A DNA stretch of 27,167 nt from a virus, in IMG/VR virus record IMGVR_UViG_3300036770_003696, positions 1-27,167 of that record; one strand, given 5' to 3'. Below are positions 4,248-26,545 of the stretch, piece by piece. The translations under genes and the position numbers were made by a program. A model generated the notes under the pieces. The model was given only the letters and a program-made list of their open reading frames with translations, made no database searches and had not been told where the DNA came from. The first letter of the stretch is position 1; each line of letters begins with the position of its first letter.

Positions 4248-4302
4248 GGGGCGTCTAGCTCGACGGAGTGAAAGAGGGCATGCCGCAGCTCTTTGACGCC
4301 CC
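4248..4302 (+). other. Structured intergenic element, potential three-way junction RNA
   Basis: An 8-bp perfect outer stem GGGGCGTC (4248-4255) / GACGCCCC (4295-4302) encloses two further pairings. One is AAAGAG (4271-4276) with CTCTTT (4289-4294), stacked directly on the outer stem. The other is a small CTC/GAG hairpin (4259-4268). The loop of the larger hairpin contains the palindrome GGCATGCC (4277-4284). It lies in the only sizeable gap of this arm, 4241-4334, 22 bases ahead of the AGGAG (4324-4328) of the primase-helicase gene. No T-run follows, so it is not an intrinsic terminator. It may control that gene's translation, or act as DNA (protein-binding site or origin). Confidence 0.4.
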
Positions 4303-4334
4303 CATTTACATCGCGGCAGGTCTAGGAGCGGCTG

Positions 4335-7405: not shown

Positions 7406-7429
7406 CCCCCGCGCCCTGCGGGGGTTTTT
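7406..7429 (+). terminator. Intrinsic terminator of the + strand arm
   Basis: A perfect 7-bp stem CCCCCGC (7406-7412) / GCGGGGG (7418-7424) with a 5-base loop is followed directly by TTTTT (7425-7429). It ends the rightward operon between the converging arms. The - strand reading has no T-run after the stem, so it should work in one direction only. The T-run overlaps the stop codon of the leftward giant gene. Confidence 0.88.
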
Positions 7430-7526
7430 ATTTCAAGATACCTTTCTTTTTGAGCGCCGCAGTGAGCTCGTCGTCAGGTATATCGTCATACTCAGGGTAT
7501 CGCTTCCGCACTTCTTCGAGCGTCAT
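7428..7526 (-). repeat. C-terminal copy of the terminal motif in the giant protein
   Basis: The last 32 residues (LEEVRKRYPEYDDIPDDEL core, then a lysine-rich end) repeat the N-terminal motif. The copy begins with an in-frame ATG (7524-7526) but has no ribosome binding site, so it is part of the giant protein, not a separate gene. Confidence 0.7.
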
Positions 7527-10500
7527 CTGTTTAGATGGAGCAGGTTCTTTCTTTCCAGTCTCAAGCATTTGCCCTATACGCCCGATTAAACGCTTATCGA
7601 TCCGAGCGCCGACTGCCTCGGCTTGGGCTATATCTTCAGCTCGCTTCTCGAAAGAGTTTTGAATCTTCTCTGCGAGGCTTCCGCTCTTTGGCAATAACTC
7701 TGGGTTTTTACCGTAGAAGTCAATAGCTTTATCTAAAGCAGCTTCGTAGCCTTCATCGTTATCCCGCTCAAGCCATAGTCGGTTGAGGATTGCAGTTTCT
7801 TTGGCTTTAATGGTGAGGTCAGCTTCTTTAGCTTGTATGGCGCGTTTTTGCTTTAGTGCTAATTCTTCAGGCTGTAACCCAATCGCTTGCATCGCAAGCA
7901 TCCAACCAGAGAAATCTTCGGGGGCAATTTGGGTTTCACCAGATTTAGTCACCGCACCTTCAGTGCCATACCGATATGCTTGCATAGGCTTTGCGAAAAA
8001 TGCGGGAAGTATCTTTTCCCAAGCACGTTGGTATTGCCCTTCGTTGAACAGTTTGACGGCTTCGGCCCAGTTTAAACCTAGACCAACTACCGGACCGGCG
8101 TTAGCTATAACGTCTTGGATTAGCCCTTCAACAATATCAGGCGAATACCGACCGTCTCGGTAGAAAAGATTCTTGGGGTCAAGGCTTACACGTTCAGAAA
8201 TACTGCCTTCCACGACTTGAGATACCGGCCCTCTTGCAAATGACATGCCGCCCATCCACTCGCTAGCCCAACGGCGGAACCAGTTCAGGTAATCAAATAG
8301 CTCATCATCTTTCTCATCGTCCGAAGCTAGCATCGCTGCCATGATAGGCATGACGATCCAGAAGAACGGCATAGCTTCTAACCCACCGAACAAAAAGGTA
8401 ACACCAAGAATACCTGCGAGCTCTTTCCGTGCTTGACTACCGATGTCGCTTCGGAAGTCCTCTATCTCGTCCATCCTACGATCAATCTCAGCTTGCGACA
8501 TGTTCTGTTTGGCATAAAACTCTCGGATTTCGCCAAGCTCTTTTTTGCTATACGGACGTAATCCTAACTGCAATGCACGCACCCAGTTGTACGTTGCCAT
8601 AACAGCGTATTGTTTAAACTTTAGAATGACGCTCAGTGGGACATTAGCAAACAGCCTGGACTTCATCTGTCGGCTAAAGTCGCCAAGGGTCAGCCCTGCA
8701 ATGTGTTTTGCTTCTTCGATAGCCGCTTCAAAAGCTTCATCAGGAGTGTAAGTTACTGGGTTTCCGTTAGCGTCTCGCTCAATAGCTCCTCGTGTATCAC
8801 GCTTGGGCTCATTAAGCAGTCGGTCGTATTCAAGCTCAAAGGCCGACATCAACGCAACTTCGCGGTTAGCACGCTCTGATTGGTGGAACAGCCCACCGAG
8901 TATTTTCTTTATGACGTTATAGCGAGTGGTGTACAGCTCGGACGGGCGGTCGCTAAGATCAAAAATATCGTTGGTTAGGCTGATATTGACCTGCTCTTCG
9001 GAAATGAACCGATCAGCAGCACGTTTCAACAGCGGGGATAGGTTACCGCTCTCGACGATAGAGGGGAACTGCATCTCAAAGAGCAGCCCTTTTGCGGCAG
9101 GTTTTAGGGTGCGCCCAGGTGCAGTCTGCCAGTACCGGCCCATATTCTTGAGCATGACCTCACTGGCTTTGGTGTAGCCGTACTTACCACCAAGCTTAGA
9201 GCCAGCAAATACTGCAAAACCTACCGTGTTGAGTAAGGCTGTAAACGGTGCCGACAGCATCGTAAAGAACACTATCGAGCCAGCGGTGCCCGCAGCTTTT
9301 GCTAATAACGATTTATCTTCCGCACTCAAGATAGTCTTAGTGCGTGCTTCTAGCTCGTTAATATAATCTCTATAGACTTCCCGCGTGTCAGGCTTAAAGA
9401 ATTCCTTGACGTACTCTCGCGCTTTATTGATGTTGTTGATGAAATCTTCGCTGTACTTGAACCGCGCCATTTGGTAAGCGTTGTGCACCGCAACATCAGT
9501 GAACACCCGCAACATATCACTGCTAGCACCTTGGATAGCCTTACGATTAATAAACATCTTCCGCATGCTTTGTTGCGGCAGCATGATGTAAATCAACTGG
9601 TTCAAGCTATCCTTCAGTTCATCCCGTACATCTTCAGCCGTCTTGGTAGCCGCAGCACCTGTGGGCGGCACGATGGAGTCGATAAGCTCCTGCACCTCTT
9701 TCAGTATTTGCGTAGACGCTAAGTTTTTCGAGAACAATTCAGAGATACCGCTACCTGCTTCGACCGTCTCGGCAAGTGCTTTCTGTTTTGCGTTACCAGC
9801 TTGCAGTTCACGTATCCGCGCACGACGCGACAGCTCACGAGAAATCTCGCTCTCAAACTCATAAAACTCTTTGTTAGCACCTTTACCTACCTGGAACCAG
9901 TACTCACCAAAGCGACGTAGCGGGAAGTATGGGAATACCAACTTGCTAGGTGCAAATTGTTCATTGATCTTGCGTATAGCTTCCTGACGTTCAGCTTTGG
10001 GCAGCTTCAAGACCCGCTTCTTCATCTCGCGGATCATCTCTTGCAAGTTGTTATAGAAGTAATCTCTAACCTTGCGGTATATGGCTTTGAACTCAGGATC
10101 TAGGCTGGCCCAGGCAGCATCAAGCTCCGGCGTAGTCGGCCCTTTGTCTGGATCTTTACCGTTAATGGTAGCGTCCAGCATGACTCTACCAACCAAGGTA
10201 GACTGCGCTGGCTTTTTATTTTGAGCATTAAGCCAGTCAAGGGCAATCGTCTGTGCTTCTTTCAACTTCGACAAGCGATACGAAGTCATCTTGTCTACGA
10301 TATTGATCGCAGTGGTAAGCTGAGGAAACTTAGTACGTGTGATGTCTGCAAGTTGCCGCAAGGTCGCAGCAAACAAAAAGGCTCGGCGTAGTTTTCCGTT
10401 TGCCGGATTCCATAGTGCTGGCCCTAGTTCGCCCATCGCTTTAGCAAACGGCACGCGCCGCTTTAACGCATCACCTATGATGCTACCAAGCGATTTGGAC

Positions 10501-13500
10501 ACATCCTCAACCGTGCGCCATTTGGATTTACCACTGATAGGTCCACGAGCAGGGGCAACACGCTTTTTCTTACCAGGAGGTGTAGGTGGTTGTTGACCAG
10601 GAGGTGTAGGCAGTGGCTGGTTAAACGGTATACCCGTAGTTGGTGATACTCCTGGTGGGGATGGTTTGGGGAACTGCGGTTTCTGCCCAGGAGGTGTAGG
10701 CGGCGGAGATGATGAAGTACTAAAGGCTATCCACCCTTGATCTTCTACATCACCATCTTCTCCAGCTCTTCCACTGACTTCGCCTTCACTAGGGGTTTCA
10801 GGTCTTTGTACACCTGCGCCCCTTCCGGGTCGTTCTCCTGCTGATACAGCCTTAGCCTCGTCTCCAGCGCCGCTTCCAACTCTTCCTTCCGGTAATCTGG
10901 AGGCGCTTTGCTTGTAATCCTCAAGAGACTTTCCAGTGTTAATAGTTGTAGATTTTCCATATTCTTCCTTCATGGCACTAAAAGTCGATTCGTGCCGCAC
11001 TAATATGTCTAATATAGCGTCCCTAAAGTAGTCAAGCATACCTTCATCTGCAAGGTATTGCTCAACTTTGATCATGTTGGTGTTATGCCCAACTCCATGA
11101 GACATATCCCCGGTATGGGCTATTTCATGAATCATGGTGTTGAGTATGACTTGGCGAACGCCAAACAAAGACTTTGATCCCCAATCATAGAAAGGATTCA
11201 CATACACCGCTTTATACGGAACTCTTATATGCACCCCACCGTATTTTTTATCGATGCTTATCCCAGCAAAAAATAAATTATCCGGTTTCAAAACGTCGTA
11301 ACCGTAGATTCCACTGTCTGCTAGTAGCTCTTTCATTTCGACTAGCAACGTACCAAGCTCAGCAAAGAACCCTACAGGGTCGCCATAAGGTTCCCCAACA
11401 GCTATAAGATCTGCACTAACGTTGGAGTGAAAAGCAGGAGACTTAGGATCTTGCACCATTGAAAGCATGAACTTCGCTTTGGTGGGGGCTGCTTCATCCG
11501 CTTTAAAAGTTTCCTCTAGCAAACGTTCCGACTTAGGTTCGTTAGATGTAATAACGTTACCATTTGGGTTTACAACGACTACCTGCCCTCCTTGCGGTAA
11601 GATCTTGACGGTGGTGTCAATAGCTGGTTTAACAGGCGTAGATTTTTCTGCGGCAATTCTGCGTTCGTTGAATAGCTTTACTAATTTATCAGACGATTCT
11701 TTAAGATCTTGCCCCCCTTCTAAGCGAGGAAGCATGACAATTTTCTTAAAGTTATCCTGCAATTCTTGCATTTCTTCGCCACGGGCGATCATGGCGAGGT
11801 AGCTATTAAGCGCCTTTATGTCCTTTTCATGCGTCGGTTTAAAACGCTCACGTTCATAAGTAAAGGGATACTCAGGAAGTTTAGCTGCTACTTTAGGCTT
11901 AATGTTAACAATGATGTCAAACGGAATTTGCTCACTCATAGATTTCATAAACCTATGATTAAACTGATACACACCGCTTGATAAAATATAGTGGGACGGA
12001 TATTGCGAAGGATTTATACCGAAATATACGTCTGCTTCGCCCCACTCAAAGTCAACTTTAAGTTTCCTGTATTTATCATGGGGGAAATTAGCCCCTACTT
12101 TGGGCGTCTCTTTCTTACCGTCTATTGAAAAATCTATTTCTACGTTATCGTGGATAAGAGGATAGTTAAAAAAAGTTGTATCTTCTAATCTCCACGGAAA
12201 CCATATATAAACGGTTTTACCAAAACTATCAACGAACGATTCAGGCACAGTCACTGTTGTCGTTGTACCGTGTTCTGTTTTAGGCGCACGCGTGCGTTTG
12301 GCGGTAAAATCACTTCTTATAATATTGATTGAGTCTGTGTCTACAACGATTCGTTTCCCGTCACGTACAGTGTTTACATAGTAATGATCTACAGCGGTCA
12401 TAAAAGCGTATTTGGCTTTCCCAAAACCTCCGCTGGTTTCCCCAGGAGGCATATCACCTTTATCAGATCCTTCTCCAGTAAATAACGCATTGTCTACAGT
12501 TTCTTCGCTCATACCAGAGCCGTTATCAGTCACTGTTATTGTGCGTTTTGCAGAATCTAAAGCTATTGATATTTTTCCTTTTTTAATGGTGCCTTCGTAC
12601 ATAGCCCGTTTAACGCCATCAAAAGCATTTTGCGTTAGTTCTTTAACAGCAACTTGGGCTAAAGACCCACCATACATCTGAGCGCCATGTGCCCTAATGA
12701 CTGCTTCGCTATCAACCTTAAACTGCATTTTCTTCTCGCCATAACCTTCTTTGGTAGAGAAAGAAATGTTAGCGTTGGTGTTAGGACGCGATACTAGCTC
12801 CAGTTTTGCAGCAGGCACCTTTACGTACGACTTTGGGTTTTTCATCGTATCTGGGCGGTAACGCACCATATTGCCTTCCACACCGACTACTACGCCGGGG
12901 GTATTACCGTACCTGACAACATCCCCCATCAAAAAGCCTGACGCTATCGTGTCTATGTTCTTTTGGATGGTGTCGTTTAAAGCATCAACCTCTTTATTAT
13001 TTGGAGGCTGTAAGTTAAAGTCTGTAGGCGGCTGCTCGTTTACACGGACGGTGTCATCAACAGGAGGCGTAACGCCTTGAGAAGCCTCTTCAAGTTTGTC
13101 GAGAAGCTCCCTAATCTTTGCTAGATCTTTCCCCTGCTCGGCGTATAGCTTATTAAGCTTATCGGGCGAAAAGGTCTTGTACTTTCTATCTTGTGCAAGT
13201 CTCTGGCTTAATATGCTGTAACCACCTGCACTGATAATAGTACCCAGCCGATACAGCTCTTTAATTTCTTTAGGAGCATTTGTGCTTATCGCAGCGCCAT
13301 CGTAAGGCATAAAGCCTGCTTGACGTATGGCTTCATTAATATCTGTAATAGCTATATCAGTGTTAGCGAGCACCTTACCGGCAGGAGCTAGCCCTTCGGC
13401 TTGACGCTTAGTGCTCGTTTCTTTAGTGTATTGGTCTAGTATTAATCGCTCTCTTGGGGTATTGCTCCGTAGCGTATCCCGCAAGGTATTTGTCGTTGAA

Positions 13501-15635
13501 ACTGGCTCCGCCTTAGCGGGGGTTTCAAACTTCTTTAGCTTCTCCGTAGCAAAATCAACGGTTTCTTGAGTGCTAGGCTTTTTAGTCCGCATCGGACCTT
13601 GTAACCGCGTGAGGATACCCTCCCCAAAGCTTTTACCGCCAGGAGTTTGCAGCAGCCTTTGAGCTATGTCGTATTCTTGCTGTTCAAAAGTGTTGAACGG
13701 GGCAGCGGGCTCAGCGGGAGCGGCAGGTGCTCTTGCAGCCTTTTTTCTTTTAGCAGGCGCTGGTTCTCGCGGCGCTTCTGCTTCGACGGTTTCGGTGGGC
13801 GTAGGGGCACTAATAATCTCCTTTTCTTCGTTCTTTGCTTCTTCCAATGCCAAAGATACTTCTTTACGAATATTTACATCTTCTTCGCTTAATTTATTTT
13901 TTCTATACGGTTCCACCATTTTGTTAATTGCATCAACATCCTCTTCCGTATAGACCGTATTACGCTTAAGTCCTATCTCTAATAATTCATTTAACTCTGC
14001 CCCATATGCGGGGTCGTACGTCATAAGCTCGTCAGTTAGCTCACGTAACTGTTGAGGAACGCTTTTTGGTTCTGGTTCTGTTAATGCAGGAGGCGGTCCT
14101 CCTTCTCCCGGTACAGGTGCAGGAGGAGTAGGCGTAGGAACTCCCACTGATGGCTGCTGAGTTTCTGCAACTCCTTCGGGGGCGAGAGTTCGTTCGGGTC
14201 TGCCAGAAACTGGAATGCTCTCTCCACCAAGGGTACGGGAAGGTCGCTGACCAGGGGGAATGATGACATCACGCTCTCCTTCACCTAACTTGTCTATTGC
14301 CCTACGTGCACCGCTTTTAGCTAGTGCAGCGGCACCTGCAACGCCACCAATCGTGCCGGTTTGCAGTACGGTTTGTAGGACGGTATCGGATAACTGCTTA
14401 ATAAGATCGGCAGCGGTGCCTTCTTGCCTAAGACCAATGGGTAACTTCTCTATACCAAACTGAGCGGCGGTAGTTGCCATCTCTGCGGGTACTTCTTTGG
14501 CGATTGCTTTACCAAAATAGTTGCCAAGAAAGTCAGCTAACTCATCAGTGCGTACGCCTTTAGCAGCAGCACGCATACCAGCTATCTGTTCAGATAGCCC
14601 AAACCGCGAGAAATATATCTCTGCACCGGTTAGTAACGATGCGCGTAACGCAGACTCGGAAGCAGACTGGCCTTCCCGCTTACCTTCAGAGTACGCCTGC
14701 CCAAACGAAGTAACTCCAATATTTGCTAGTACCGGTAATGTTGTACCTGTGAATAAACTTGCTAAAAGCCCTGGACCCTGCTGGGCGAGCGAATTAAGCA
14801 TGTTCTCAAACTGGTCAACCAGAGGAGACCGACTCTTAGGCTCACCAAGTTGCTGCAAGAATGCTTCAGATTTTTTGCCAACCTGCCCGTAATACCTAGC
14901 GGCTTCTTCGTTACCTGTTAGATCAGCAATAGCTTCCGCAGTACCAGCAGCGCCTTGTTTAAGCCCTTCGCTTGCACGAGCTAGCGCCCTACCTGCTACA
15001 CCTTCTTTGCGGGTCTCAAGGGCTTCAACAGCTTCGGGGGATGGTTCTTCGGCTACGGTAAGTGCGCGTGGCCCCATACCTCGCTCAATCTCTTGTTGAG
15101 CTATGAGGTCGGCAACCTCATAGTTAGCGCCTTGACTGACAAGCTGCTCTACTCTTGCTTCGCGCCTAGGGTCTAACCGTTTAAGCGAAGGTGCAGTAGG
15201 CTTGAAGCGCCCGTATTCAGCATCGAGAGCACGCACCACATTACCAACGTAGTCGGTACGTTTAGCTAAAACCTCACGCTGTTGAGGCGTAGCCATGTCG
15301 TACATTGACCGTATCCTGTCGTACTCTTTCTGGCTAACCGGAGCACCCCGTGTCTCTATCGGTGCAGTCGGCTCAGGCTTAAAGCCTTCCATGACAGACG
15401 CACGTCGAGAAGGAGTAGGGGCAGGTGTTATGGGAGCGGTAGCAAACGCCGACTCAGTACCTGTGATGGGTTCTGGCTGGGCAAGCGGTTCAGCGGGGGT
15501 ATACCCAACTTTAGCGTAATACTCTTCCCTAGAAAAATCAGAAGTGTAAAACTTATCGTACAACTTATCCGCTAGTTCTTTGTCAGAAATGTCGTTGTAC
15601 TGCGGGTATGACTTACGAAACTCGTCAAGTCTCAT
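7428..15635 (-). CDS. Giant polyvalent virion protein with Hsp90-like ATPase and HExxH metallopeptidase (2735 aa)
   Basis: The ATG overlaps the preceding stop by one base (TAATG), so translation is probably coupled. An alpha-helical N-terminal region (hydrophobic around 290-312) is followed by P/E-rich linkers and a small KOW-like part (GDVVRYGNTPGVVVGVEG). Next is a GHKL/Hsp90-like ATPase: N box KELTQNAFDG (E999, N1003), G1 DNGSGM (1037-1042) and G2 GETSGGFGKAKYAF (from 1065). A zincin-like site HEIAH (1503-1507) has H1512 in metzincin spacing. A PPG-rich linker (about 1641-1692) leads to a ~1000-residue C-terminal region with hydrophobic segments near 2113-2142 and 2405-2435. The layout matches large polyvalent proteins, thought to be packaged and ejected with DNA. 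Roles of the enzyme parts are inference. Confidence 0.85.
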   Translation of the reverse strand: MRLDEFRKSYPQYNDISDKELADKLYDKFYTSDFSREEYYAKVGYTPAEPLAQPEPITGTESAFATAPITPAPTPSRRASVMEGFKPEPTAPIETRGAPVSQKEYDRIRSMYDMATPQQREVLAKRTDYVGNVVRALDAEYGRFKPTAPSLKRLDPRREARVEQLVSQGANYEVADLIAQQEIERGMGPRALTVAEEPSPEAVEALETRKEGVAGRALARASEGLKQGAAGTAEAIADLTGNEEAARYYGQVGKKSEAFLQQLGEPKSRSPLVDQFENMLNSLAQQGPGLLASLFTGTTLPVLANIGVTSFGQAYSEGKREGQSASESALRASLLTGAEIYFSRFGLSEQIAGMRAAAKGVRTDELADFLGNYFGKAIAKEVPAEMATTAAQFGIEKLPIGLRQEGTAADLIKQLSDTVLQTVLQTGTIGGVAGAAALAKSGARRAIDKLGEGERDVIIPPGQRPSRTLGGESIPVSGRPERTLAPEGVAETQQPSVGVPTPTPPAPVPGEGGPPPALTEPEPKSVPQQLRELTDELMTYDPAYGAELNELLEIGLKRNTVYTEEDVDAINKMVEPYRKNKLSEEDVNIRKEVSLALEEAKNEEKEIISAPTPTETVEAEAPREPAPAKRKKAARAPAAPAEPAAPFNTFEQQEYDIAQRLLQTPGGKSFGEGILTRLQGPMRTKKPSTQETVDFATEKLKKFETPAKAEPVSTTNTLRDTLRSNTPRERLILDQYTKETSTKRQAEGLAPAGKVLANTDIAITDINEAIRQAGFMPYDGAAISTNAPKEIKELYRLGTIISAGGYSILSQRLAQDRKYKTFSPDKLNKLYAEQGKDLAKIRELLDKLEEASQGVTPPVDDTVRVNEQPPTDFNLQPPNNKEVDALNDTIQKNIDTIASGFLMGDVVRYGNTPGVVVGVEGNMVRYRPDTMKNPKSYVKVPAAKLELVSRPNTNANISFSTKEGYGEKKMQFKVDSEAVIRAHGAQMYGGSLAQVAVKELTQNAFDGVKRAMYEGTIKKGKISIALDSAKRTITVTDNGSGMSEETVDNALFTGEGSDKGDMPPGETSGGFGKAKYAFMTAVDHYYVNTVRDGKRIVVDTDSINIIRSDFTAKRTRAPKTEHGTTTTVTVPESFVDSFGKTVYIWFPWRLEDTTFFNYPLIHDNVEIDFSIDGKKETPKVGANFPHDKYRKLKVDFEWGEADVYFGINPSQYPSHYILSSGVYQFNHRFMKSMSEQIPFDIIVNIKPKVAAKLPEYPFTYERERFKPTHEKDIKALNSYLAMIARGEEMQELQDNFKKIVMLPRLEGGQDLKESSDKLVKLFNERRIAAEKSTPVKPAIDTTVKILPQGGQVVVVNPNGNVITSNEPKSERLLEETFKADEAAPTKAKFMLSMVQDPKSPAFHSNVSADLIAVGEPYGDPVGFFAELGTLLVEMKELLADSGIYGYDVLKPDNLFFAGISIDKKYGGVHIRVPYKAVYVNPFYDWGSKSLFGVRQVILNTMIHEIAHTGDMSHGVGHNTNMIKVEQYLADEGMLDYFRDAILDILVRHESTFSAMKEEYGKSTTINTGKSLEDYKQSASRLPEGRVGSGAGDEAKAVSAGERPGRGAGVQRPETPSEGEVSGRAGEDGDVEDQGWIAFSTSSSPPPTPPGQKPQFPKPSPPGVSPTTGIPFNQPLPTPPGQQPPTPPGKKKRVAPARGPISGKSKWRTVEDVSKSLGSIIGDALKRRVPFAKAMGELGPALWNPANGKLRRAFLFAATLRQLADITRTKFPQLTTAINIVDKMTSYRLSKLKEAQTIALDWLNAQNKKPAQSTLVGRVMLDATINGKDPDKGPTTPELDAAWASLDPEFKAIYRKVRDYFYNNLQEMIREMKKRVLKLPKAERQEAIRKINEQFAPSKLVFPYFPLRRFGEYWFQVGKGANKEFYEFESEISRELSRRARIRELQAGNAKQKALAETVEAGSGISELFSKNLASTQILKEVQELIDSIVPPTGAAATKTAEDVRDELKDSLNQLIYIMLPQQSMRKMFINRKAIQGASSDMLRVFTDVAVHNAYQMARFKYSEDFINNINKAREYVKEFFKPDTREVYRDYINELEARTKTILSAEDKSLLAKAAGTAGSIVFFTMLSAPFTALLNTVGFAVFAGSKLGGKYGYTKASEVMLKNMGRYWQTAPGRTLKPAAKGLLFEMQFPSIVESGNLSPLLKRAADRFISEEQVNISLTNDIFDLSDRPSELYTTRYNVIKKILGGLFHQSERANREVALMSAFELEYDRLLNEPKRDTRGAIERDANGNPVTYTPDEAFEAAIEEAKHIAGLTLGDFSRQMKSRLFANVPLSVILKFKQYAVMATYNWVRALQLGLRPYSKKELGEIREFYAKQNMSQAEIDRRMDEIEDFRSDIGSQARKELAGILGVTFLFGGLEAMPFFWIVMPIMAAMLASDDEKDDELFDYLNWFRRWASEWMGGMSFARGPVSQVVEGSISERVSLDPKNLFYRDGRYSPDIVEGLIQDVIANAGPVVGLGLNWAEAVKLFNEGQYQRAWEKILPAFFAKPMQAYRYGTEGAVTKSGETQIAPEDFSGWMLAMQAIGLQPEELALKQKRAIQAKEADLTIKAKETAILNRLWLERDNDEGYEAALDKAIDFYGKNPELLPKSGSLAEKIQNSFEKRAEDIAQAEAVGARIDKRLIGRIGQMLETGKKEPAPSKQMTLEEVRKRYPEYDDIPDDELTAALKKKGILK
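10573..10700 (-). repeat. Three exact 14-base repeats encoding a PTPPG linker
   Basis: CCAGGAGGTGTAGG (+ strand) occurs at 10573-10586, 10597-10610 and 10687-10700, each encoding P-T-P-P-G in the giant protein. The exact DNA identity points to recent duplication or slippage rather than protein-level constraint alone. The result is a flexible linker between the metallopeptidase part and the C-terminal region. Confidence 0.75.
10745..10960 (-). CDS. Candidate overprinted small gene inside the giant gene (71 aa, +1 frame)
   Basis: A +1-frame reading frame starts at ATG 10958-10960, with AAGGA and 5-6 bases between. It ends at TAG 10745-10747. The product reads like a real helical protein: APPDYRKEELEAALETRLRL, YQQENDPEGAQVYKDLKPLV, AKSVEELEKMVM. 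Its codons end mostly in G or C (GAG, CTG, GCG, AAG, GTG). The giant protein's own frame over the same bases is a low-complexity G/E/R/S/A linker (GRVGSGAGDEAKAVSAGERP), the kind of sequence produced by reading a gene out of frame. I cannot show it is translated; it may instead be a relic of an older frame. Confidence 0.35.
   Translation of the reverse strand: MENLQLLTLESLLRITSKAPPDYRKEELEAALETRLRLYQQENDPEGAQVYKDLKPLVKAKSVEELEKMVM
15549..15635 (-). repeat. N-terminal copy of a terminal motif in the giant protein
   Basis: Residues 1-29 (LDEFRKSYPQYNDISDKEL core) match the C-terminal copy at 7428-7526, with about 15 of 28 positions identical by eye. The Y-P-x-Y-x-D-I-x-D-x-E-L pattern is the shared signature. 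I take it as a docking or packaging tag. Confidence 0.7.
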
Positions 15636-17212
15636 TATCTAAGTCCGAGTGGGTCGTCACGTTTACCACCAGCTTGCGGATAAGGAAGCACACCCCTTGT
15701 ACTTGAAGTGGGGAAACGCTTTCTCATTTCTGTTTCAGCATATTCCTCAGCAGCAGCTTCGCCTTGTTCTCGCTTTAATTTTCTATAAGCAGGTGTAAGC
15801 CTTACTCGTGCCATCGCTTCATCTTCTGCTTGAGATCGTCTGGTTTCAGCAGTAGTTTTACTAGTATCAGCTCTTGTCGTAGCTGCTGCGGCGGATACAC
15901 CGCTTGGTAGCATCTTAGCGGCTTCTTGGTATGCCGCTACCTTAAGCTGTTCATCGGTTACCTGCTCACCTTTTGGCTTTTTAGCGTTCTCTTCTTTAAG
16001 CTTCCCAAACCATGCAGCAGATAGTTGCTGAAGATCAGTTTTACCACCTGATTCTCTCTGCATTCCAGCAATCTTTTCTGCGACCTCAGCACGCATAACA
16101 GCAATAGCTTCTGCGGATGCGATCCTCTCGGCAACGCTACGTTCAGATGCGGCGATGCGCTCCATCATAGCTTTGATTTGCTCGTCTTTATAGCCAGCGT
16201 CAAGCAACATCTTACGAGCATCAGAAACTTGTTTGAGCGCAGTTTCGCGCTGCTTAATGCCTGCATCAATATCGCCTTCAGCCATCTTAAGCTTGGAATC
16301 TTCGATGCGGTCTTTAGCTTCTGACATAGCCAACTGAAACTGCCGATCAAGTGCTTTGTTTTGTTGTACTTGAGCTTGGAGTGACTGCGCCGCAGCACCA
16401 ATCTTTCCTTTACGTGGTGCTGAAGCAAACGCAGCAAGCGAAGAAGCAAGCGCCCCAAGACCCCGCCCTTCTTTTTCTTTTTCGTACTCTTTCTCTCTAG
16501 CTGCTAGTCGATCTTCACGCGCTTTATAAACATTTCCTAACCCCATTTCTTCACGAAGCCTACGTCTTTCTGCAACAGCTTGCTGTTCGGTTGGAACGTC
16601 CATAAGTGCTTGACGGTAAATAGCTTCTTTTAGATCACTTTCATCAGCCCTAGATACCCCCTTGGGTACACTGTACATCGATGGGCCACCTCGTGCTTCG
16701 TACTCATCTATCTCTGCATTCGACATGTCATTAAGCCCACCGTTGCTAAACGACACAATACCTCCAGGTGCAAAGCCTTGCGCCATGTTCTGTGCGGGAA
16801 GCGCAGCAAGTCCTGCTTCTTGAGGAGGCTGTGGTTGTGGTTGCGGTGGGGGTGCAGCGGGCGGCTGCATCGGGGGAGGCGCAGCAGGAGGCATGGGCTG
16901 ACCCATAGCCATTGGGAGTCCTGAGACTTGTCGTTGCAGTGCACCATTTCTCATCGCACCGTCAAGCATCGCCTTAAGCTGAGCGATCTCCATCTCTTTC
17001 TGCGCCATGATAGTCGGCGTTTGTGATGGGTTTGCTTGAAGTGCTTGAGTACCCATCGACGCATTCGTCATACGGGCTCGGCGTAATTCTTCGTATTTCG
17101 CATCTTCAGGTAATACTTGAGGCTGCATACCTTGCTGATAGCGGTCAAGCATAGCGTTAGGAACCGCTTGTGGGTTCTCCAAAGCACTCTGAATTTGCAT
17201 ACGGTTATACAT
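15635..17212 (-). CDS. Alanine/glutamine-rich internal virion protein, putative (525 aa)
   Basis: The ATG lies 2 bases after the preceding stop, with a modest GGTGG site. Residues 1-95 are helical and Q/M-rich. About 100-140 is a P/Q/A-rich linker with PQPQPQPP. Then comes FAPGGIVSFSNGG (about 147-159), a glycine-flanked hydrophobic motif that I recall from many phage internal or ejection proteins. Residues 190-470 are long charged and alanine-rich helices predicted to be coiled coil. The end is basic. There is no catalytic motif and no signal peptide. It lies between the 242-residue protein and the giant, so it most likely belongs to the set of ejected or internal core proteins. That role is inferred from position and composition. 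Confidence 0.7.
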   Translation of the reverse strand: MYNRMQIQSALENPQAVPNAMLDRYQQGMQPQVLPEDAKYEELRRARMTNASMGTQALQANPSQTPTIMAQKEMEIAQLKAMLDGAMRNGALQRQVSGLPMAMGQPMPPAAPPPMQPPAAPPPQPQPQPPQEAGLAALPAQNMAQGFAPGGIVSFSNGGLNDMSNAEIDEYEARGGPSMYSVPKGVSRADESDLKEAIYRQALMDVPTEQQAVAERRRLREEMGLGNVYKAREDRLAAREKEYEKEKEGRGLGALASSLAAFASAPRKGKIGAAAQSLQAQVQQNKALDRQFQLAMSEAKDRIEDSKLKMAEGDIDAGIKQRETALKQVSDARKMLLDAGYKDEQIKAMMERIAASERSVAERIASAEAIAVMRAEVAEKIAGMQRESGGKTDLQQLSAAWFGKLKEENAKKPKGEQVTDEQLKVAAYQEAAKMLPSGVSAAAATTRADTSKTTAETRRSQAEDEAMARVRLTPAYRKLKREQGEAAAEEYAETEMRKRFPTSSTRGVLPYPQAGGKRDDPLGLR

Positions 17213-17214
17213 AA

Positions 17215-17943
17215 TTAACCACCAGGGAATAATTTGCTGATGTCAAAGCCAGCCTGTTTTAAGTTAGCAGCAATAGATGCTATCCCAGCTAAGTTTTGAA
17301 TATTACTTGGCCCTTGTTGATAATAGTTTGTCGTCGCAATCGGTAAGCCTTGAAGCAGACCTTGACGAAACTTAAGCATCTCCAACGGGTACTGATACTG
17401 TTCACGCTCATACTGAGCACGGTCGCGGTCGATAGCTGCTTGTTGTAAAGCTTGCTGCGATGCGCCCATGCCATAGGTAGACTGCAACCGATTAATGTCA
17501 GCACCTAACGCTTGGAGGCCGAACTGTGTACCAGCATAATCACCTTTTTGCTGGATGTCAGCTAATTGCTGCTGCAAGTTACGGTCACGTTCTGCTTGCA
17601 TAAGCCCGTACCGAGACCCACCAAATGCGCCAGCACCTACAGCTTTAGCAGCGTCTTGTTGCCCAGCAATCTGCGACGTACGTGTAGCTTCACGTTTGGC
17701 AATATCCGTGACGTTTTGCTGATAAGGGTTAAGGTATTGCTGATAAAACGCAGCAGTACCTGGAGAAGCAAGATTACCTATGCCAGTAAGAGCGTTGTAT
17801 TGCTGTGGCTGGAACCCAGCCGACAGCGGTCGGTCATAAGGTTTATACGGTAGATTAGCGAATGCTTCTCCTTGCTGAAGAAGGCGCTCTACATAAGGAC
17901 CGGCCCAAGCCGATAGCGTTGATGAAGAAGTTGCATCAGCCAT
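17215..17943 (-). CDS. Putative DNA-ejection/internal virion protein (242 aa)
   Basis: The ATG has a GAGG site about 6 bases upstream and follows the 997-residue gene by 2 bases. The protein opens with YVERLLQQGEAFANLPYKPY and RPLSAGFQPQQ. It then has NPYQQNVTDIAKREATR and a glycine motif GAGAFGGSRYG. The rest is glutamine-rich helix (NLQQQLADIQQKG). From memory, this family (a P-Y-x-P-Y start, the N-P-Y-x-x-N-V-x-D-I motif, then GAFGGSR) is widespread in podovirus-like phages next to other ejection proteins. A structural or ejection role is likely; the exact role is not known. Confidence 0.75.
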   Translation of the reverse strand: MADATSSSTLSAWAGPYVERLLQQGEAFANLPYKPYDRPLSAGFQPQQYNALTGIGNLASPGTAAFYQQYLNPYQQNVTDIAKREATRTSQIAGQQDAAKAVGAGAFGGSRYGLMQAERDRNLQQQLADIQQKGDYAGTQFGLQALGADINRLQSTYGMGASQQALQQAAIDRDRAQYEREQYQYPLEMLKFRQGLLQGLPIATTNYYQQGPSNIQNLAGIASIAANLKQAGFDISKLFPGG

Positions 17944-17945
17944 GA

Positions 17946-20939
17946 TTACCTCGGCATAAAGCGTTCGGCGTCAATTTCACGCCCTTGTTTTTTAGTTCCG
18001 GTTCTTGCTTTGCGAACACGGTCCATCATCTCGTAAAGCATCTTTGCGCCAGCACTAGAATTACCGTTACCAAGATGACTAACGACATCAGCAGGAATAA
18101 CAAACTCCCCATCAGAAAGCGCAGCAGGGCGCTTACCATCGATATGAGCCGGTACTCTATCTGCCATCCCATCGGTTATTCCGCCTAAATATCTAGGTGG
18201 AAGTGTACGCCCACCACGCGCTAGAGACAACAAGCCACCGTAAGCTAAGCCTCCACCGGATGTGTCAACACCCGCACCATCAACCGTATCAGTATCGGTG
18301 CCACCTGCTGGAGAAGGCAGTACCCCAGCACCTAGATAACCTGTCGGAGGCGTATACGTAATCGGCCCAAAACGTTGGAAGTAAGGATCTTCGTAGCCCA
18401 CAGTATCAGCTCCAGCATAGTCATAGGTCTCAGGGGGTGCTTTGTAAGTACGCGCTGCCGTGAAAGGTTGCGTTAGGTTAGGTGTGTAGGAAGCGGGACC
18501 GTCACCGCCCAGAGTAAGGTTTGTAAACAGACTTGGTAGGCCCACAAGATTAAATTCGCATTCCCCAGTTTTAGCGTTATGTGTATACCCTGTGGGGCAT
18601 TTATCACCGGTGATAGTGTCATTACCGCCACCACCTGTAATTGTAGTTTCAGGAGTGCTGCAAATTTGACCCCCAGAAACAGTATCGTTTACAGCAACTT
18701 GTCCTGGAGGACATACGCAATTACCAGCAGCGTCTCGTGTTTGACCTAGAGCTGGGCAAGCCTCTACTTTTACAGAAGGTTTGCATTCACCATTTTGTTC
18801 TGTAGTTCCTGGAGGGCATACACAATCACCAGCAGTGTTACGTTCTTGACCTATAACTGGACACATAGTGTCTATGATGACCGTCGTTGTGTCTTGGCAT
18901 AACCCAAGCGCATTAGGCGCTTGGTCAGGATCTAAGCAGTAGCAGTTACCGTCTGCCCCTTTGTATTGATCTTCATTGCATTTTTTAGCAGTAACTTCTA
19001 AGGACGGTTTGCATTGGCCGTCTGCTTGTTTTGTAGTTCCTGGAGGGCAAGTGTCATTGCCTGCCCCACCCGTTAAATTAAGCGTGGTGTACTCTAAATC
19101 AAAGCACGAATTAGTTTGGGGGTTATACCCCATACCTTTAGCGTAACAGTCCGCCGCAGTTACTGTGACTTTTGCGGATTCTTTGCAATCCTCCCCTTGT
19201 TCTATATATCCTGGAGGGCATACGCATCCGCCGTTTACATTGTCGCGGATCTTAGGATATTTGCAAAAAGTATCTACAACCTTTGTCGAAGTTGCTGGCG
19301 GTGGAGTAGGTGTCTTTGGTTTAAATGTTGATAATCCAGAAATATCGACCCGTTCAACACATTTGTTTTCTATGGGGTCGTAGTCCATACCAATCTTGTT
19401 GCAATCAGCCGCAGTTACGGTAACTTTACCAGCGTCGATTGTGTCGTTACCCGAACCGCCTAATACGACGTAATCAATAGGATCATAACAGCCACCAGTT
19501 ATGGGGTCGCGAATTTGATTGGGGTTTTCGCAAGGATCAGAAGCGCCTGTAACTTCTACAGTACCGGCTTTGATTGAATCATTACCTGAACCACTTTCGA
19601 TGTAGTCAGATATGGTGTCATTGATTGAATCGTTACCTTTACCACCAGCTACAGTAACTGCACCCGCTTTAAGAGTATCAGCGCCAGAACCGCCTGTAAC
19701 GTTTGCCTTTTTACCATCGCCAAAGCCAGAACCAGTAAAGAAACCGGTAGGGTCGAACTGATCAAGGGGGTCAACGTCTGCTTTAACGACAACTTTACCG
19801 GCAGCATCGTTTATCAAATTGGTGGCGTCAGTGCCTTCTGCAAAAGAATCCTGAATAAGCTCAAGCGCATCATCACCGGTTAACTTAGTGCCAGGGATTT
19901 TCGTATCCCCAAAAGTACCCATGATCGCGCCAAGACCTGTATTACGGTAAATATCGTTGCTGTTACCACCAGCAATCAACGTTGTTAGCCCAGCCGTAGT
20001 CCCTTTAGCAATGCCGTTAGAAAGCTTTTCCGACACCTTATCCGAAAGGTCGCTAATACCCGTAACGTCAAGCCCTTTAGTCGCAAGATTACCGACAAGC
20101 GAAGTAAAAGGTACGTCTTTGTTAGTGCCTAACAAATCTCCAGAACCCGGAATGGGTACGTTATTAAGTATCGTTCCAGCAAGCGTTCCAGTCGCGCCTT
20201 CTTTGAAATCACCCCCAAGAAGTTCGGAAGCAGTTCCGTTTACTAACATCCCCACGCCGGTCTTGATTGCGGCTTTTTCCGCAGCAGTTAGCGCAACTTG
20301 TTCAGCAACCCCCGGTAGCATCTCAACCCCGGCAAGCGCATTGCTGTTTATAGCGCTAACGACATAGTCGGTAAGCGTGTTGGTGATGGGCTTAGTAACA
20401 ATCTGCGTGGGGTTTGTGATTGCACTTGCAGCTTCGCCAACTGTGAGGTTAGACGCAAGGCTTCCCGAACCTGCTCCTGCCGAGCCACCTAAAGAACTTA
20501 ATACATCCCCCGCACCCATCGCCATACCGACAGTACCGAGGGCTTGAAGCCAGCCTTGTAATTCAGAAGGGTTGGGTTTAGTTAAGCGTCTGCTGGTAGG
20601 GTTACCGTACGCGTCGTACTGCTGGACAATTAATTTATCGCCCTGTACACCAACAACTTGCTCAGTGACAATATCGTCACCTTTCTCTACCTGACGAATC
20701 CCTGTATCTGTTCCAAACGTGCGCTGCACATCTCCGGTAAGTAACGTGCCAAGTGGAATACCTGCATCACGAAACAGTTGTTGAATATCACCTGTTGATA
20801 CACCTTTGAACGAGGCGAGATCGTCTGCGCTCAAACCAAATGATGTAGCGATTTTCTGGAGCTTGGAGGCATCATTACCCGCAGCCGCAATCTGATCACG
20901 AATGATGTCGTCTATATACCCAAGGCTGGAAGTCGCCAT
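17946..20939 (-). CDS. Modular virion protein with RTX-like and cysteine repeats (997 aa)
   Basis: The start follows the fibre gene by 3 bases with GGGGTAAGGT upstream. Residues 1-140 are soluble and helical; 140-400 are alanine/glycine-rich with hydrophobic stretches. Residues 416-795 carry repeats of two kinds: GGSGNDTI-type units like calcium-binding RTX nonapeptides, and cysteine modules such as CVCPPGTTEQNGECKPS. The C-terminal part has YGGLLSLARGG and LSDGEFVIPADVVSHLGNG, then a basic helix; from memory, this ending is typical of phage ejection proteins. Its place next to the other internal-protein genes supports that. The repeats could instead sit outside and bind the cell surface. The gene is certain, the role inferred. 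Confidence 0.75.
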   Translation of the reverse strand: MATSSLGYIDDIIRDQIAAAGNDASKLQKIATSFGLSADDLASFKGVSTGDIQQLFRDAGIPLGTLLTGDVQRTFGTDTGIRQVEKGDDIVTEQVVGVQGDKLIVQQYDAYGNPTSRRLTKPNPSELQGWLQALGTVGMAMGAGDVLSSLGGSAGAGSGSLASNLTVGEAASAITNPTQIVTKPITNTLTDYVVSAINSNALAGVEMLPGVAEQVALTAAEKAAIKTGVGMLVNGTASELLGGDFKEGATGTLAGTILNNVPIPGSGDLLGTNKDVPFTSLVGNLATKGLDVTGISDLSDKVSEKLSNGIAKGTTAGLTTLIAGGNSNDIYRNTGLGAIMGTFGDTKIPGTKLTGDDALELIQDSFAEGTDATNLINDAAGKVVVKADVDPLDQFDPTGFFTGSGFGDGKKANVTGGSGADTLKAGAVTVAGGKGNDSINDTISDYIESGSGNDSIKAGTVEVTGASDPCENPNQIRDPITGGCYDPIDYVVLGGSGNDTIDAGKVTVTAADCNKIGMDYDPIENKCVERVDISGLSTFKPKTPTPPPATSTKVVDTFCKYPKIRDNVNGGCVCPPGYIEQGEDCKESAKVTVTAADCYAKGMGYNPQTNSCFDLEYTTLNLTGGAGNDTCPPGTTKQADGQCKPSLEVTAKKCNEDQYKGADGNCYCLDPDQAPNALGLCQDTTTVIIDTMCPVIGQERNTAGDCVCPPGTTEQNGECKPSVKVEACPALGQTRDAAGNCVCPPGQVAVNDTVSGGQICSTPETTITGGGGNDTITGDKCPTGYTHNAKTGECEFNLVGLPSLFTNLTLGGDGPASYTPNLTQPFTAARTYKAPPETYDYAGADTVGYEDPYFQRFGPITYTPPTGYLGAGVLPSPAGGTDTDTVDGAGVDTSGGGLAYGGLLSLARGGRTLPPRYLGGITDGMADRVPAHIDGKRPAALSDGEFVIPADVVSHLGNGNSSAGAKMLYEMMDRVRKARTGTKKQGREIDAERFMPR
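18557..19694 (-). repeat. Repeat region: RTX-like units alternating with cysteine modules
   Basis: This covers residues 416-795 of the 997-residue protein. RTX-like units are TGGSGADTLKAG, AGGKGNDSINDT, ESGSGNDSIKAG, LGGSGNDTIDAG, TGGAGNDT and TGGGGNDTITGD. Cysteine modules share CPPG followed by EQ and a closing C-K-P/E-S. VTVTAADC also appears twice. The units are diverged, so the array is old or under selection for variety. Confidence 0.75.
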
Positions 20940-24895: not shown

Positions 24896-26545
24896 TTACA
24901 ATGAAGGTATCTTAATAAATACAACACCAGAACCCCCCGCAGCGTTTCCTCCTCCACCACCGCCGGTGTTGGCTACGCCCCCTGTAGACGCAGTTGAAGG
25001 TGCAACGGCTTTAGAACCATTACCACCGGAAACCCCCGGAGTGCCTGGGCCACCAATACCTGCCAAATCTTTCCCGGCACCGCCTCCTCCACCCGCATAC
25101 GTGACAGGGCTTCCTGAAATTGAAGACGATAATCCGGCTCCGCCGTTTCCACCATAACCTAATGTAGGACTTGGAGGAAATACGTATTGGGCATTTGCAC
25201 CACCGCCTCCGGCCCCACCACCACCTCCACCCGATTCTACGAGCACCCCTCCAGGCGCTGGGCCACCTCCACCATTTCCTTGTCCTGGCGTTCCTAACCC
25301 TCCTGGTCCAGGAGCACTTTGTCCAGCACCCCCTCCAGATCCACCATTACCTCCGCTCCTCTGGGCTGCGGGTTGAAAAGTATCGGCTCCCCCACCGCCA
25401 CCACCTACAGCGGATACTAAAGTTACTGAAGGCGTAGCAATTGAAGAATTTCCTCCTTGGCTACCCCTAGCAAATAAATTTGTACCACCTCCACCACCAA
25501 CTGTGATGGTATAAGTTAACCCTGGTTCAACAGCTAAGGCTGTCCCTTGTACAAATCCACCCGCGCCGCCACCGCCAGACCCCGCCCCTCCATATCCACC
25601 GCCGCCACCTCCAGCAACAACAAGGTATTCAACGCTGTAAACATCAGGTGGGCATGTCCAGGTGCCAGAGGCTCGAAAAGGAAAAACCGAATTACGCGTT
25701 ATCGTGTACTTCAAAACAATTACACCGCTACCGCCTGATGGAGTACCGTAGCCACCACCAGCGCCTCCACCTGTTTGAGCAACACCGGCTGTAGCGTTAA
25801 TAAATACCGGACCGCCTCCCGGTCTATAACCACCATTACCGCCCGAAACTCCCGGAGTGCCTGGGCCACCTATTCCACCTCCAGTTGGGGCGCCACCATC
25901 CCCGCCTCCACCGCCGCCTGAGTATGTAATTGATGACCCGCTCAGTGAATTTACCGTACCATTTCCACCATTACCACCAAAGCCGCCTCCATAACTACCA
26001 CCCCCGCTTGCTGAACCCCCACCACCACCGCCTCCATCATAGGAGCTTGGTGAACTTCCAGCCCCGCCGCTATTACCTTGTCCTGGAGTGCCTGGACCAC
26101 CAGCAGCTCCTGTAAAACCAGCAGTTCCCCCACCCCCTGATCCGCCAGAAGCCCCATTACTGGGTACACCAAACCCACCGGGGTTAATACCCCCTCGACC
26201 GCCGCCCACAGCGGTTGTAAAACTTGATACTGGCGACGGCGCAGTTAAGGATGATGAATTTCCATTTGACCCGCCGCCGCCCCCGCCGCCCACAGTAACG
26301 GTATATGTAACACCCCCGGTTACAGGAAATCCTGTACCAGCAACGTATCCTCCGCCACCACCGCCACCGACGCTACCTGAAATACTTGAGCTTCCCGAAC
26401 CACCTCCGCCAGCAACTATTAAATAATCAACAGTAAGTCCATCTACAGGCGCAGTCCATGTTGTTGATCCGGTAAAAGTAATAACCTCTGTAATGAGCGT
26501 ATTACTTAAACCCTTATTAAACAGCGTCGCTAAGATGCCTGTCAT
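24896..26545 (-). CDS. Glycine-rich tail adhesin with two repeated domains (549 aa)
   Basis: The start overlaps the tail-fibre stop as ATGA. Two homologous halves each open with a strand set (STTWTAPVDGLTVDYLIVAGG; GTWTCPPDVYSVEYLVVAGG). Each then has long polyglycine loops, the motif GGPGTPGVSGGNG, and a last strand GGSGVIVLKY or GGSGVVFIKI. This is the glycine-rich domain found at phage tail-fibre tips. A related case, Salmonella phage S16 gp38, uses stacked polyglycine helices as the receptor-binding tip. It lies directly after the fibre-stalk gene, as such adhesins do. Very likely it decides the host receptor. The composition makes the opposite strand open in long proline-rich frames, which are not genes. 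Confidence 0.8.
   Translation of the reverse strand: MTGILATLFNKGLSNTLITEVITFTGSTTWTAPVDGLTVDYLIVAGGGGSGSSSISGSVGGGGGGGYVAGTGFPVTGGVTYTVTVGGGGGGGSNGNSSSLTAPSPVSSFTTAVGGGRGGINPGGFGVPSNGASGGSGGGGTAGFTGAAGGPGTPGQGNSGGAGSSPSSYDGGGGGGGSASGGGSYGGGFGGNGGNGTVNSLSGSSITYSGGGGGGDGGAPTGGGIGGPGTPGVSGGNGGYRPGGGPVFINATAGVAQTGGGAGGGYGTPSGGSGVIVLKYTITRNSVFPFRASGTWTCPPDVYSVEYLVVAGGGGGGYGGAGSGGGGAGGFVQGTALAVEPGLTYTITVGGGGGTNLFARGSQGGNSSIATPSVTLVSAVGGGGGGADTFQPAAQRSGGNGGSGGGAGQSAPGPGGLGTPGQGNGGGGPAPGGVLVESGGGGGGAGGGGANAQYVFPPSPTLGYGGNGGAGLSSSISGSPVTYAGGGGGAGKDLAGIGGPGTPGVSGGNGSKAVAPSTASTGGVANTGGGGGGNAAGGSGVVFIKIPSL
24899..25684 (-). repeat. Glycine-rich domain, copy 2
   Basis: Approximate residues 288-549 of the adhesin. 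It begins at FPFRASGTW and ends at GGSGVVFIKIPSL. It is closely similar in layout to copy 1, and the polyglycine stretches differ in length. Confidence 0.65.
25693..26488 (-). repeat. Glycine-rich domain, copy 1
   Basis: Approximate residues 20-284 of the adhesin. It begins at TFTGSTTW and ends at SGGSGVIVLKY. It shares the opening strands, GGPGTPGVSGGNG and the closing strand with copy 2. Confidence 0.65.

What the first reader, a model, noticed from the sequence alone, without database searches (positions are those of the whole stretch)
7428..15635. 2735-residue protein joining an Hsp90-like ATPase and a zincin-type peptidase
One late gene covers 30% of the window. It holds an intact GHKL set (E999/N1003, DNGSGM, GETSGGFGKAKYAF) and HEIAH with a third histidine at metzincin spacing, where aspartate replaces the usual glycine (HExxHxxDxxH). 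Large polyvalent proteins are known from phages and conjugative elements. A chaperone-type ATPase beside a peptidase in one ejected protein would be a good candidate for remodelling or cutting host proteins at entry, or for self-processing. That role is inference.
Basis: partly seen in the sequence, partly recalled or inferred. Interest (0 to 1): 0.7.

Follow-up and report, generated by a model that had tools for sequence, protein, structure and literature searches.

The report
Phage Hsp90-like ATPase fused to metallopeptidase
A very large late protein of an uncultivated tailed phage carries a conserved, shuffling cassette in which an Hsp90/MutL-type ATP clamp is joined to a WLM/SprT-type zinc peptidase; this looks like an undescribed payload of the known class of phage 'polyvalent' proteins, and its function is inferred, not tested.

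Summary
A 2735-codon ORF on the minus strand (15635→7428) has an intact GHKL ATPase (residues ~970-1139), a second domain that structure comparison aligns with the transducer/middle domains of MutL, Hsp90 and GyrB (~1139-1310), and an HExxH peptidase (~1375-1580). It is not an assembly chimera: a ~90% identical 2720-aa ortholog exists. The peptidase is not metzincin-like. In 67 relatives position 8 is never Gly; the conserved pattern is HExxHx5[H/E]x3[H/F]; fold and profile comparisons point weakly but consistently to WLM/Wss1, YgjP and SprT. The two enzymes form one cassette: all 23 loci found with the peptidase alone carry the ATPase upstream in the same ORF, and 66 of 67 distinct ATPase sequences carry the peptidase. 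The cassette is exchanged as a block: synonymous divergence falls from ~1 to 0.04-0.47 across it, and relatives share 76-89% identical cassettes between unrelated flanks. The flanks (LPD39, PLxRFG; elsewhere LPD38, ART-PolyVal, ddrB-ParB, SLT) place it among polyvalent proteins, usually next to ejection-type genes. Best reading: an ejected, ATP-gated peptidase acting after entry (inferred). Self-processing is the main rival. New variant of a known kind.

The parts
7428..15635 (-). 2735-aa polyvalent protein gene (includes stop)
   Evidence: 2720-aa ortholog in L002
15537..15635 (-). N-terminal helical motif DEFRKSYPQYNDISDKELADKLYDKFY (residues 1-33); related copy at the C-terminus
   Evidence: sequence; similar N-termini in L021, L037, L090
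12771..12944 (-). SH3-like segment, residues 898-955, conserved just upstream of the ATPase
   Evidence: mostly beta in model
12219..12728 (-). GHKL (Bergerat) ATPase domain, residues 970-1139
12618..12644 (-). N-box KELTQNAFD 998-1006 (E999, N1003)
12510..12527 (-). G1 box DNGSGM 1037-1042
12402..12443 (-). G2/lid GETSGGFGKAKYAF 1065-1078
11706..12221 (-). transducer / Hsp90-middle-like domain, residues 1139-1310
   Evidence: Foldseek alignments of 350-480 columns to MutL, Hsp90, GyrB
11841..11870 (-). YPFTYERERF 1256-1265 with invariant Arg, candidate catalytic Arg loop (compare HtpG LPLNVSREILQ)
   Evidence: register only, not statistically significant
10896..11513 (-). WLM/SprT-like zinc peptidase domain, residues 1375-1580
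11097..11129 (-). HEIAHTGDMSH, presumed zinc ligands H1503, H1507, H1513 and catalytic E1504
10446..10895 (-). Gly/Arg/Pro-rich linker; right edge of the low-dS block near residue 1640
9993..10394 (-). LPD39, residues 1748-1881
   Evidence: Pfam E 8.1e-13
8832..9932 (-). PLxRFG / tail-700 domain, residues 1902-2268
   Evidence: NCBIfam NF032893 E 2.1e-70
7431..7538 (-). C-terminal copy of the helical motif, TLEEVRKRYPEYDDIPDDELTAALKKKG (residues 2700-2735)
   Evidence: sequence
15635..17943 (-). two upstream late genes (525 aa; 242 aa with weak 'DNA ejection protein' match), overlapping or abutting the giant gene

Best explanation
The gene makes a virion-packaged polyvalent ('pilot') protein that travels into the next host cell. 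Its middle carries a mobile cassette: an Hsp90/MutL-type ATP-gated clamp (GHKL plus transducer-like domain) hard-wired to a WLM/SprT-like zinc peptidase. Likely working: inside the virion the cassette is idle for want of ATP; after ejection, host ATP closes the clamp of a dimer on a bound protein (probably a DNA-associated or defence protein that would hinder the incoming genome) and presents a flexible stretch of it to the peptidase, which nicks it. Shown: the domains, the intact motifs, the near-obligate fusion, purifying selection, exchange as a block, polyvalent flanks. Inferred: packaging, ejection, dimer closure, cleavage, target.
For: GHKL fold and motifs; clamp architecture by fold (MutL NTD E 3.6e-12, Hsp90/TRAP1/HtpG ~1e-10, GyrB, MORC). 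Peptidase: confident model, pLDDT 88.9; HExxH invariant in 67/67; WLM/YgjP/SprT kinship. Co-inheritance: 23/23 zincin-found loci carry the ATPase, 66/67 the other way. Cassette exchanged as a unit independently of flanks, as expected of a payload with its own job. dN/dS 0.065-0.10 in the cassette. Gene order: in 57 of 98 (partly redundant) loci a homolog of the 242-aa ejection-type gene lies upstream, in 52 the primase converges downstream. Polyvalent partners LPD38/39, ART-PolyVal, ddrB-ParB, SLT, GNAT. The giant DarB-like protein of podovirus JC1, in a similar late position, is in purified virions with 51 unique peptides (PMC9144972).
Against: No virion proteomics for any cassette carrier; JC1 DarB shows no sequence homology to this protein. 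No target known. WLM kinship is sub-threshold (best Pfam E 1e-4, Foldseek prob 0.80 but E 0.22). Dimerisation and ATP gating are assumed from family knowledge. The GHKL could serve folding or ejection of the giant protein itself. The low-dS block extends ~60 residues past the peptidase into a linker that could be its own cleavage site.
Confidence: 0.45

Rival explanations
1. Self-processing: the peptidase cuts the giant protein's own linkers (in the virion or after entry, triggered by ATP binding to the GHKL switch) to release the separate polyvalent domains.
For: Iyer et al. propose autoproteolysis for zincin-like peptidases of polyvalent proteins, citing processing of P1 DdrB (PMC5512222). 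Wss1 and SPRTN autocleave, SPRTN in disordered Arg/Lys/Ser-rich stretches (PMC9240642); the linker after the zincin is Gly/Arg-rich and is partly inside the exchanged block.
Against: Flanks swap freely around the cassette; no shared cleavage motif found (FS[RK]-type enrichment only ~1.4-fold); autoprocessing needs no 340-residue ATP clamp; N4 vRNAP, which also has an HExxH domain, is packaged unprocessed (PMC5512222).
Confidence: 0.3
2. Morphogenesis: the cassette acts in the producing cell as chaperone plus maturation protease for head, tail or ejection proteins.
For: Last gene of the late operon, translationally coupled to virion-type genes; Hsp90-like part.
Against: The cassette is swapped between proteins with unrelated flanks and occurs in lineages lacking the window's neighbouring genes (L074-L077, L079, L080, L082, L085); partners are conflict-type enzymes.
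Confidence: 0.12
3. Non-catalytic use: the domains are relics serving as structure or packaging mass.
For: No activity has been measured.
Against: HExxH kept in 67/67, GHKL motifs kept, third ligand changes only H to E, itself a usual zinc ligand; dN/dS about 0.1 or less.
Confidence: 0.04

Closest known systems
Phage/conjugative polyvalent proteins (Iyer et al. 2017, PMC5512222), LPD38/LPD39/PLxRFG type
   Same: Giant multi-domain phage protein with LPD39 and PLxRFG; zincins are the commonest polyvalent domain
   Different: That paper's main text does not mention Hsp90, gyrase, histidine kinase, HATPase, GHKL, WLM or SprT domains; the catalytic pair here is not described there
DarB-like antirestriction proteins (phage P1, JC1; PHROG 10089)
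   Same: C-terminal part matches PHROG 10089 and C-termini of podovirus giant proteins
   Different: No methylase/SNF2 dyad in this polypeptide; GHKL + zincin instead; no detectable homology to JC1 DarB
HtpG (bacterial Hsp90), MutL, GyrB
   Same: GHKL plus transducer-like domain; profile match to HtpG N-domain 98.8%
   Different: Second domain not significantly alignable to HtpG by sequence; no Hsp90 C-terminal domain seen; fused to a peptidase
Phage rIIA-like GHKL proteins
   Same: Phage-encoded GHKL; one divergent member hits an 824-aa GHKL protein of Enterobacter phage SABI that I read as rIIA-like (E 7e-4)
   Different: Stand-alone, no zincin match found
Wss1/WLM, YgjP and SprT metalloproteases
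   Same: HExxHx5H signature, best solved-structure and Pfam neighbours
   Different: Below every curated threshold; His instead of Phe at position 15 in the window's clade; inserted in a polyvalent protein
N4 virion RNA polymerase C1 domain
   Same: Giant ejected protein with an HExxH domain (PMC12633501)
   Different: Polymerase payload, no GHKL

Membership tests
Polyvalent proteins | Several unrelated catalytic domains in one phage or plasmid polypeptide | tested here: met
   GHKL and zincin in one ORF; LPD39 E 8e-13; relatives with ART-PolyVal, ddrB-ParB, SLT
Polyvalent proteins | Delivered with the genome | not testable with these tools
   Only positional inference and the JC1 analogy
GHKL ATPases | N, G1, G2, G3 boxes and Bergerat fold | tested here: met
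Hsp90 (HtpG) | N, middle and C-terminal domains with NxSRExxQ catalytic Arg loop | tested here: not met
   N-domain profile match only; middle domain not significant by profile (prob 0.5%), Arg in register YPFxxxRxxF; peptidase follows in place of a C-domain
Metzincins | HExxHxxGxxH plus Met-turn | tested here: not met
   Position 8 never Gly in 67 sequences; best Foldseek hits are Wss1, not metzincins. Weak snake-venom metzincin profile hits exist, best E 0.089. Met-turn not examined
WLM/YgjP/SprT peptidases | HExxHx5Hx3F and curated family score | tested here: inconclusive
   Signature met in divergent members, H for F in the window's clade; WLM E down to 1e-4 but under cut-off
DarB antirestriction protein | Adenine methylase + SNF2 helicase dyad | tested here: not met
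   No such match in Pfam, NCBIfam or PHROGs for P0001
Known anti-phage defence proteins | PADLOC model match | tested here: not met
   0 matches at E<=1

The most novel reading that the evidence does not exclude
A self-contained ATP-gated proteolytic machine: a GHKL clamp that loads on incoming phage DNA or on a host factor and feeds DNA-bound host proteins to a Wss1/SPRTN-like peptidase, clearing the genome of defence or nucleoid proteins at entry. It spreads between phage lineages as one cassette.
Probability: 0.2. Interest if true: 0.85.

Novelty: new variant of a known kind. Interest (0 to 1): 0.6.

Why it matters
Hsp90-type clamps and WLM/SprT proteases are well studied apart. A near-obligate, mobile fusion of the two, found in dozens of uncultivated phages, gives a small (~620-residue) testable enzyme: does ATP closure of a GHKL clamp gate proteolysis, and what do phages cut on entry? 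It also adds a catalytic pair to the polyvalent-protein repertoire. No match to the window's cassette, and only ATPase-region matches to divergent members, were found in 50,697 phage records, so it has been out of view.

Tried and rejected
Metzincin reading: rejected. Recurrent FS[RK] inter-domain motif as a processing site (ISFST and IAFST copies flank the cassette here): enrichment only ~1.4-fold over shuffles and not located at cassette borders, rejected. Direct homology to JC1 DarB, hoped for as proof of virion location: none. Significant profile alignment of the second domain to the HtpG middle domain: not obtained. Defence-system membership: none. Assembly chimera: rejected by ortholog L002 and the wider family.

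Full report
What was checked. The ORF at 7428-15635 is real, on the minus strand, 2735 codons, starting with ATG that overlaps the stop of the preceding late gene (TAATG); a terminator-like hairpin just beyond its end is oriented for the convergent plus-strand genes. The window is the complete 27,167-base IMG/VR record. A second record (L002) carries a 2720-aa ortholog, 90.5% identical over the protein, in the same gene order, so the fusion is not a chimera.

Anatomy. Pfam, NCBIfam and PHROGs give LPD39 at 1748-1881, PLxRFG/tail-700 at 1902-2268 and DarB-like C-terminal matches, plus a GHKL ATPase. The ATPase has all boxes (E999, N1003, D1037NGSGM, SGGFGKAK, HGT). The predicted structure of residues 880-1605 (mean pLDDT 67; about 70-93 through most of the ATPase and second domain) matches MutL, Hsp90, TRAP1, HtpG, GyrB and MORC over 350-480 alignment columns, i.e. 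ATPase plus second domain. The second domain has an invariant Arg in Y-P-F-x-x-x-R-x-x-F; local profile alignment places this Arg on the catalytic Arg loop of HtpG (LPLNVSREILQ), but without statistical weight.

The peptidase. An alignment of 67 distinct sequences gave a confident model (pLDDT 88.9). HExxH is invariant. The third ligand, at position 11, is His in 63 and Glu in 4; position 8 is never Gly; position 15 is His in 41 and Phe in 26. Solved-structure neighbours are Wss1 (five of the six best Foldseek hits; best prob 0.80, E 0.22) and, by profile, proabylysin and Wss1 (E 0.03-0.07). Viral fold neighbours are one close 1404-aa entry (E 1.6e-8), then DUF7168, WLM and SprT proteins. Divergent members reach Pfam WLM (E down to 1e-4) and YgjP-like (2e-4), all under the curated cut-offs. 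It is a divergent WLM/YgjP/SprT-like branch.

One cassette. A scan with the peptidase alone found 23 loci; all 23 encode the ATPase and second domain upstream in the same ORF. A scan with the cassette alignment gave 77 loci; of 67 distinct ATPase sequences 66 have the peptidase, always in the same order, in proteins mostly of 1,700-5,200 aa (some cut by contig ends). This second figure favours full matches by design; the first does not. L005 is the single exception.

The cassette moves as a block. Between the window and L002 synonymous divergence is about 1 in most flanking parts and in three of four neighbouring genes, but 0.04-0.47 from residue ~900 to ~1640, with a sharp right edge; a Pro/Ala-rich stretch (~440-680) and one tail gene also have lower dS. 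Recombinational exchange of the cassette explains this best; extra constraint on the DNA is not excluded. Across the family, pairs share similar cassettes between unrelated flanks: L011/L013 89% with no N-flank match and 29% C-flank, L012/L027 88%/none/29%, L006/L021 76%/none/24%. Flanking domains include LPD39, LPD38, ART-PolyVal, ddrB-ParB, SLT, LPD22, GNAT.

Setting. In most loci the giant gene follows homologs of the window's tail/ejection-type genes and converges with a primase and SNF2 helicase gene; several divergent carriers lack these neighbours. A giant late protein in a similar position is a virion component in podovirus JC1 (51 unique peptides; PMC9144972), but JC1's protein is not detectably homologous to this one, so packaging here is inference.

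Mechanism. The best reading is an ejected, ATP-gated peptidase: host ATP closes the clamp, the adjacent peptidase nicks the held protein. SPRTN and Wss1 cut DNA-bound proteins and themselves, SPRTN in disordered basic stretches (PMC9240642), which suggests DNA-associated host proteins as targets, or the protein's own Gly/Arg-rich linker. Free swapping of flanks favours an autonomous payload over self-processing, but does not exclude the latter, which Iyer et al. proposed for polyvalent zincins in general (PMC5512222).

Novelty. Polyvalent proteins and zincins within them are known. I found no description of a GHKL ATPase in one, nor of this fused pair, in the papers searched; the library is open-access only. 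I file it as a new variant of a known kind.

Noticed in passing
window 4248-4316 (+): Rfam int-alpA RNA (RF02996, 39 bits, cut-off 35.8) directly upstream of the 942-aa primase/helicase-like gene at 4335, with no integrase or alpA gene recognised beside it in this record.
   Followed up: no
window 17946-20939 (-): 997-aa late gene with RTX-like GGxGxDxxx repeats (GGSGNDTID, GGKGNDSIN); its L002 counterpart is 1033 aa and only ~65% identical, while most neighbours are 82-96%.
   Followed up: no
window 15537-15635 and 7431-7538 (-): The giant protein begins and ends with related ~30-residue motifs (DEFRKSYPQYNDISDKELADKLYDKFY / LEEVRKRYPEYDDIPDDELTAALKKKG); similar N-termini occur in L021, L037, L090. 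Other relatives start with tandem short repeats (e.g. FSFEEA...FSFEEA). Possible docking or packaging tags.
   Followed up: partly
window ~10710-12940 (-), residues ~900-1640: Sharp local drop of synonymous divergence against L002, coinciding with the cassette; recombination is the simplest cause, hidden constraint on the DNA not excluded.
   Followed up: partly
L005:8765-14284: 1840-aa protein with the ATPase and second domain but no recognisable peptidase; the only exception to the fusion.
   Followed up: partly
L076, L077, L079, L080 (and L074, L075): Third zinc ligand is Glu in four carriers (e.g. HEINHTTxSGEGAxF); in L074/L075 the His is shifted by one residue. L076, L077 and L080 also have a second zincin-like HEFSH motif downstream.
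   Followed up: partly
window 24896-26545 (-): 549-aa extremely Gly-rich late protein made of two related halves.
   Followed up: no
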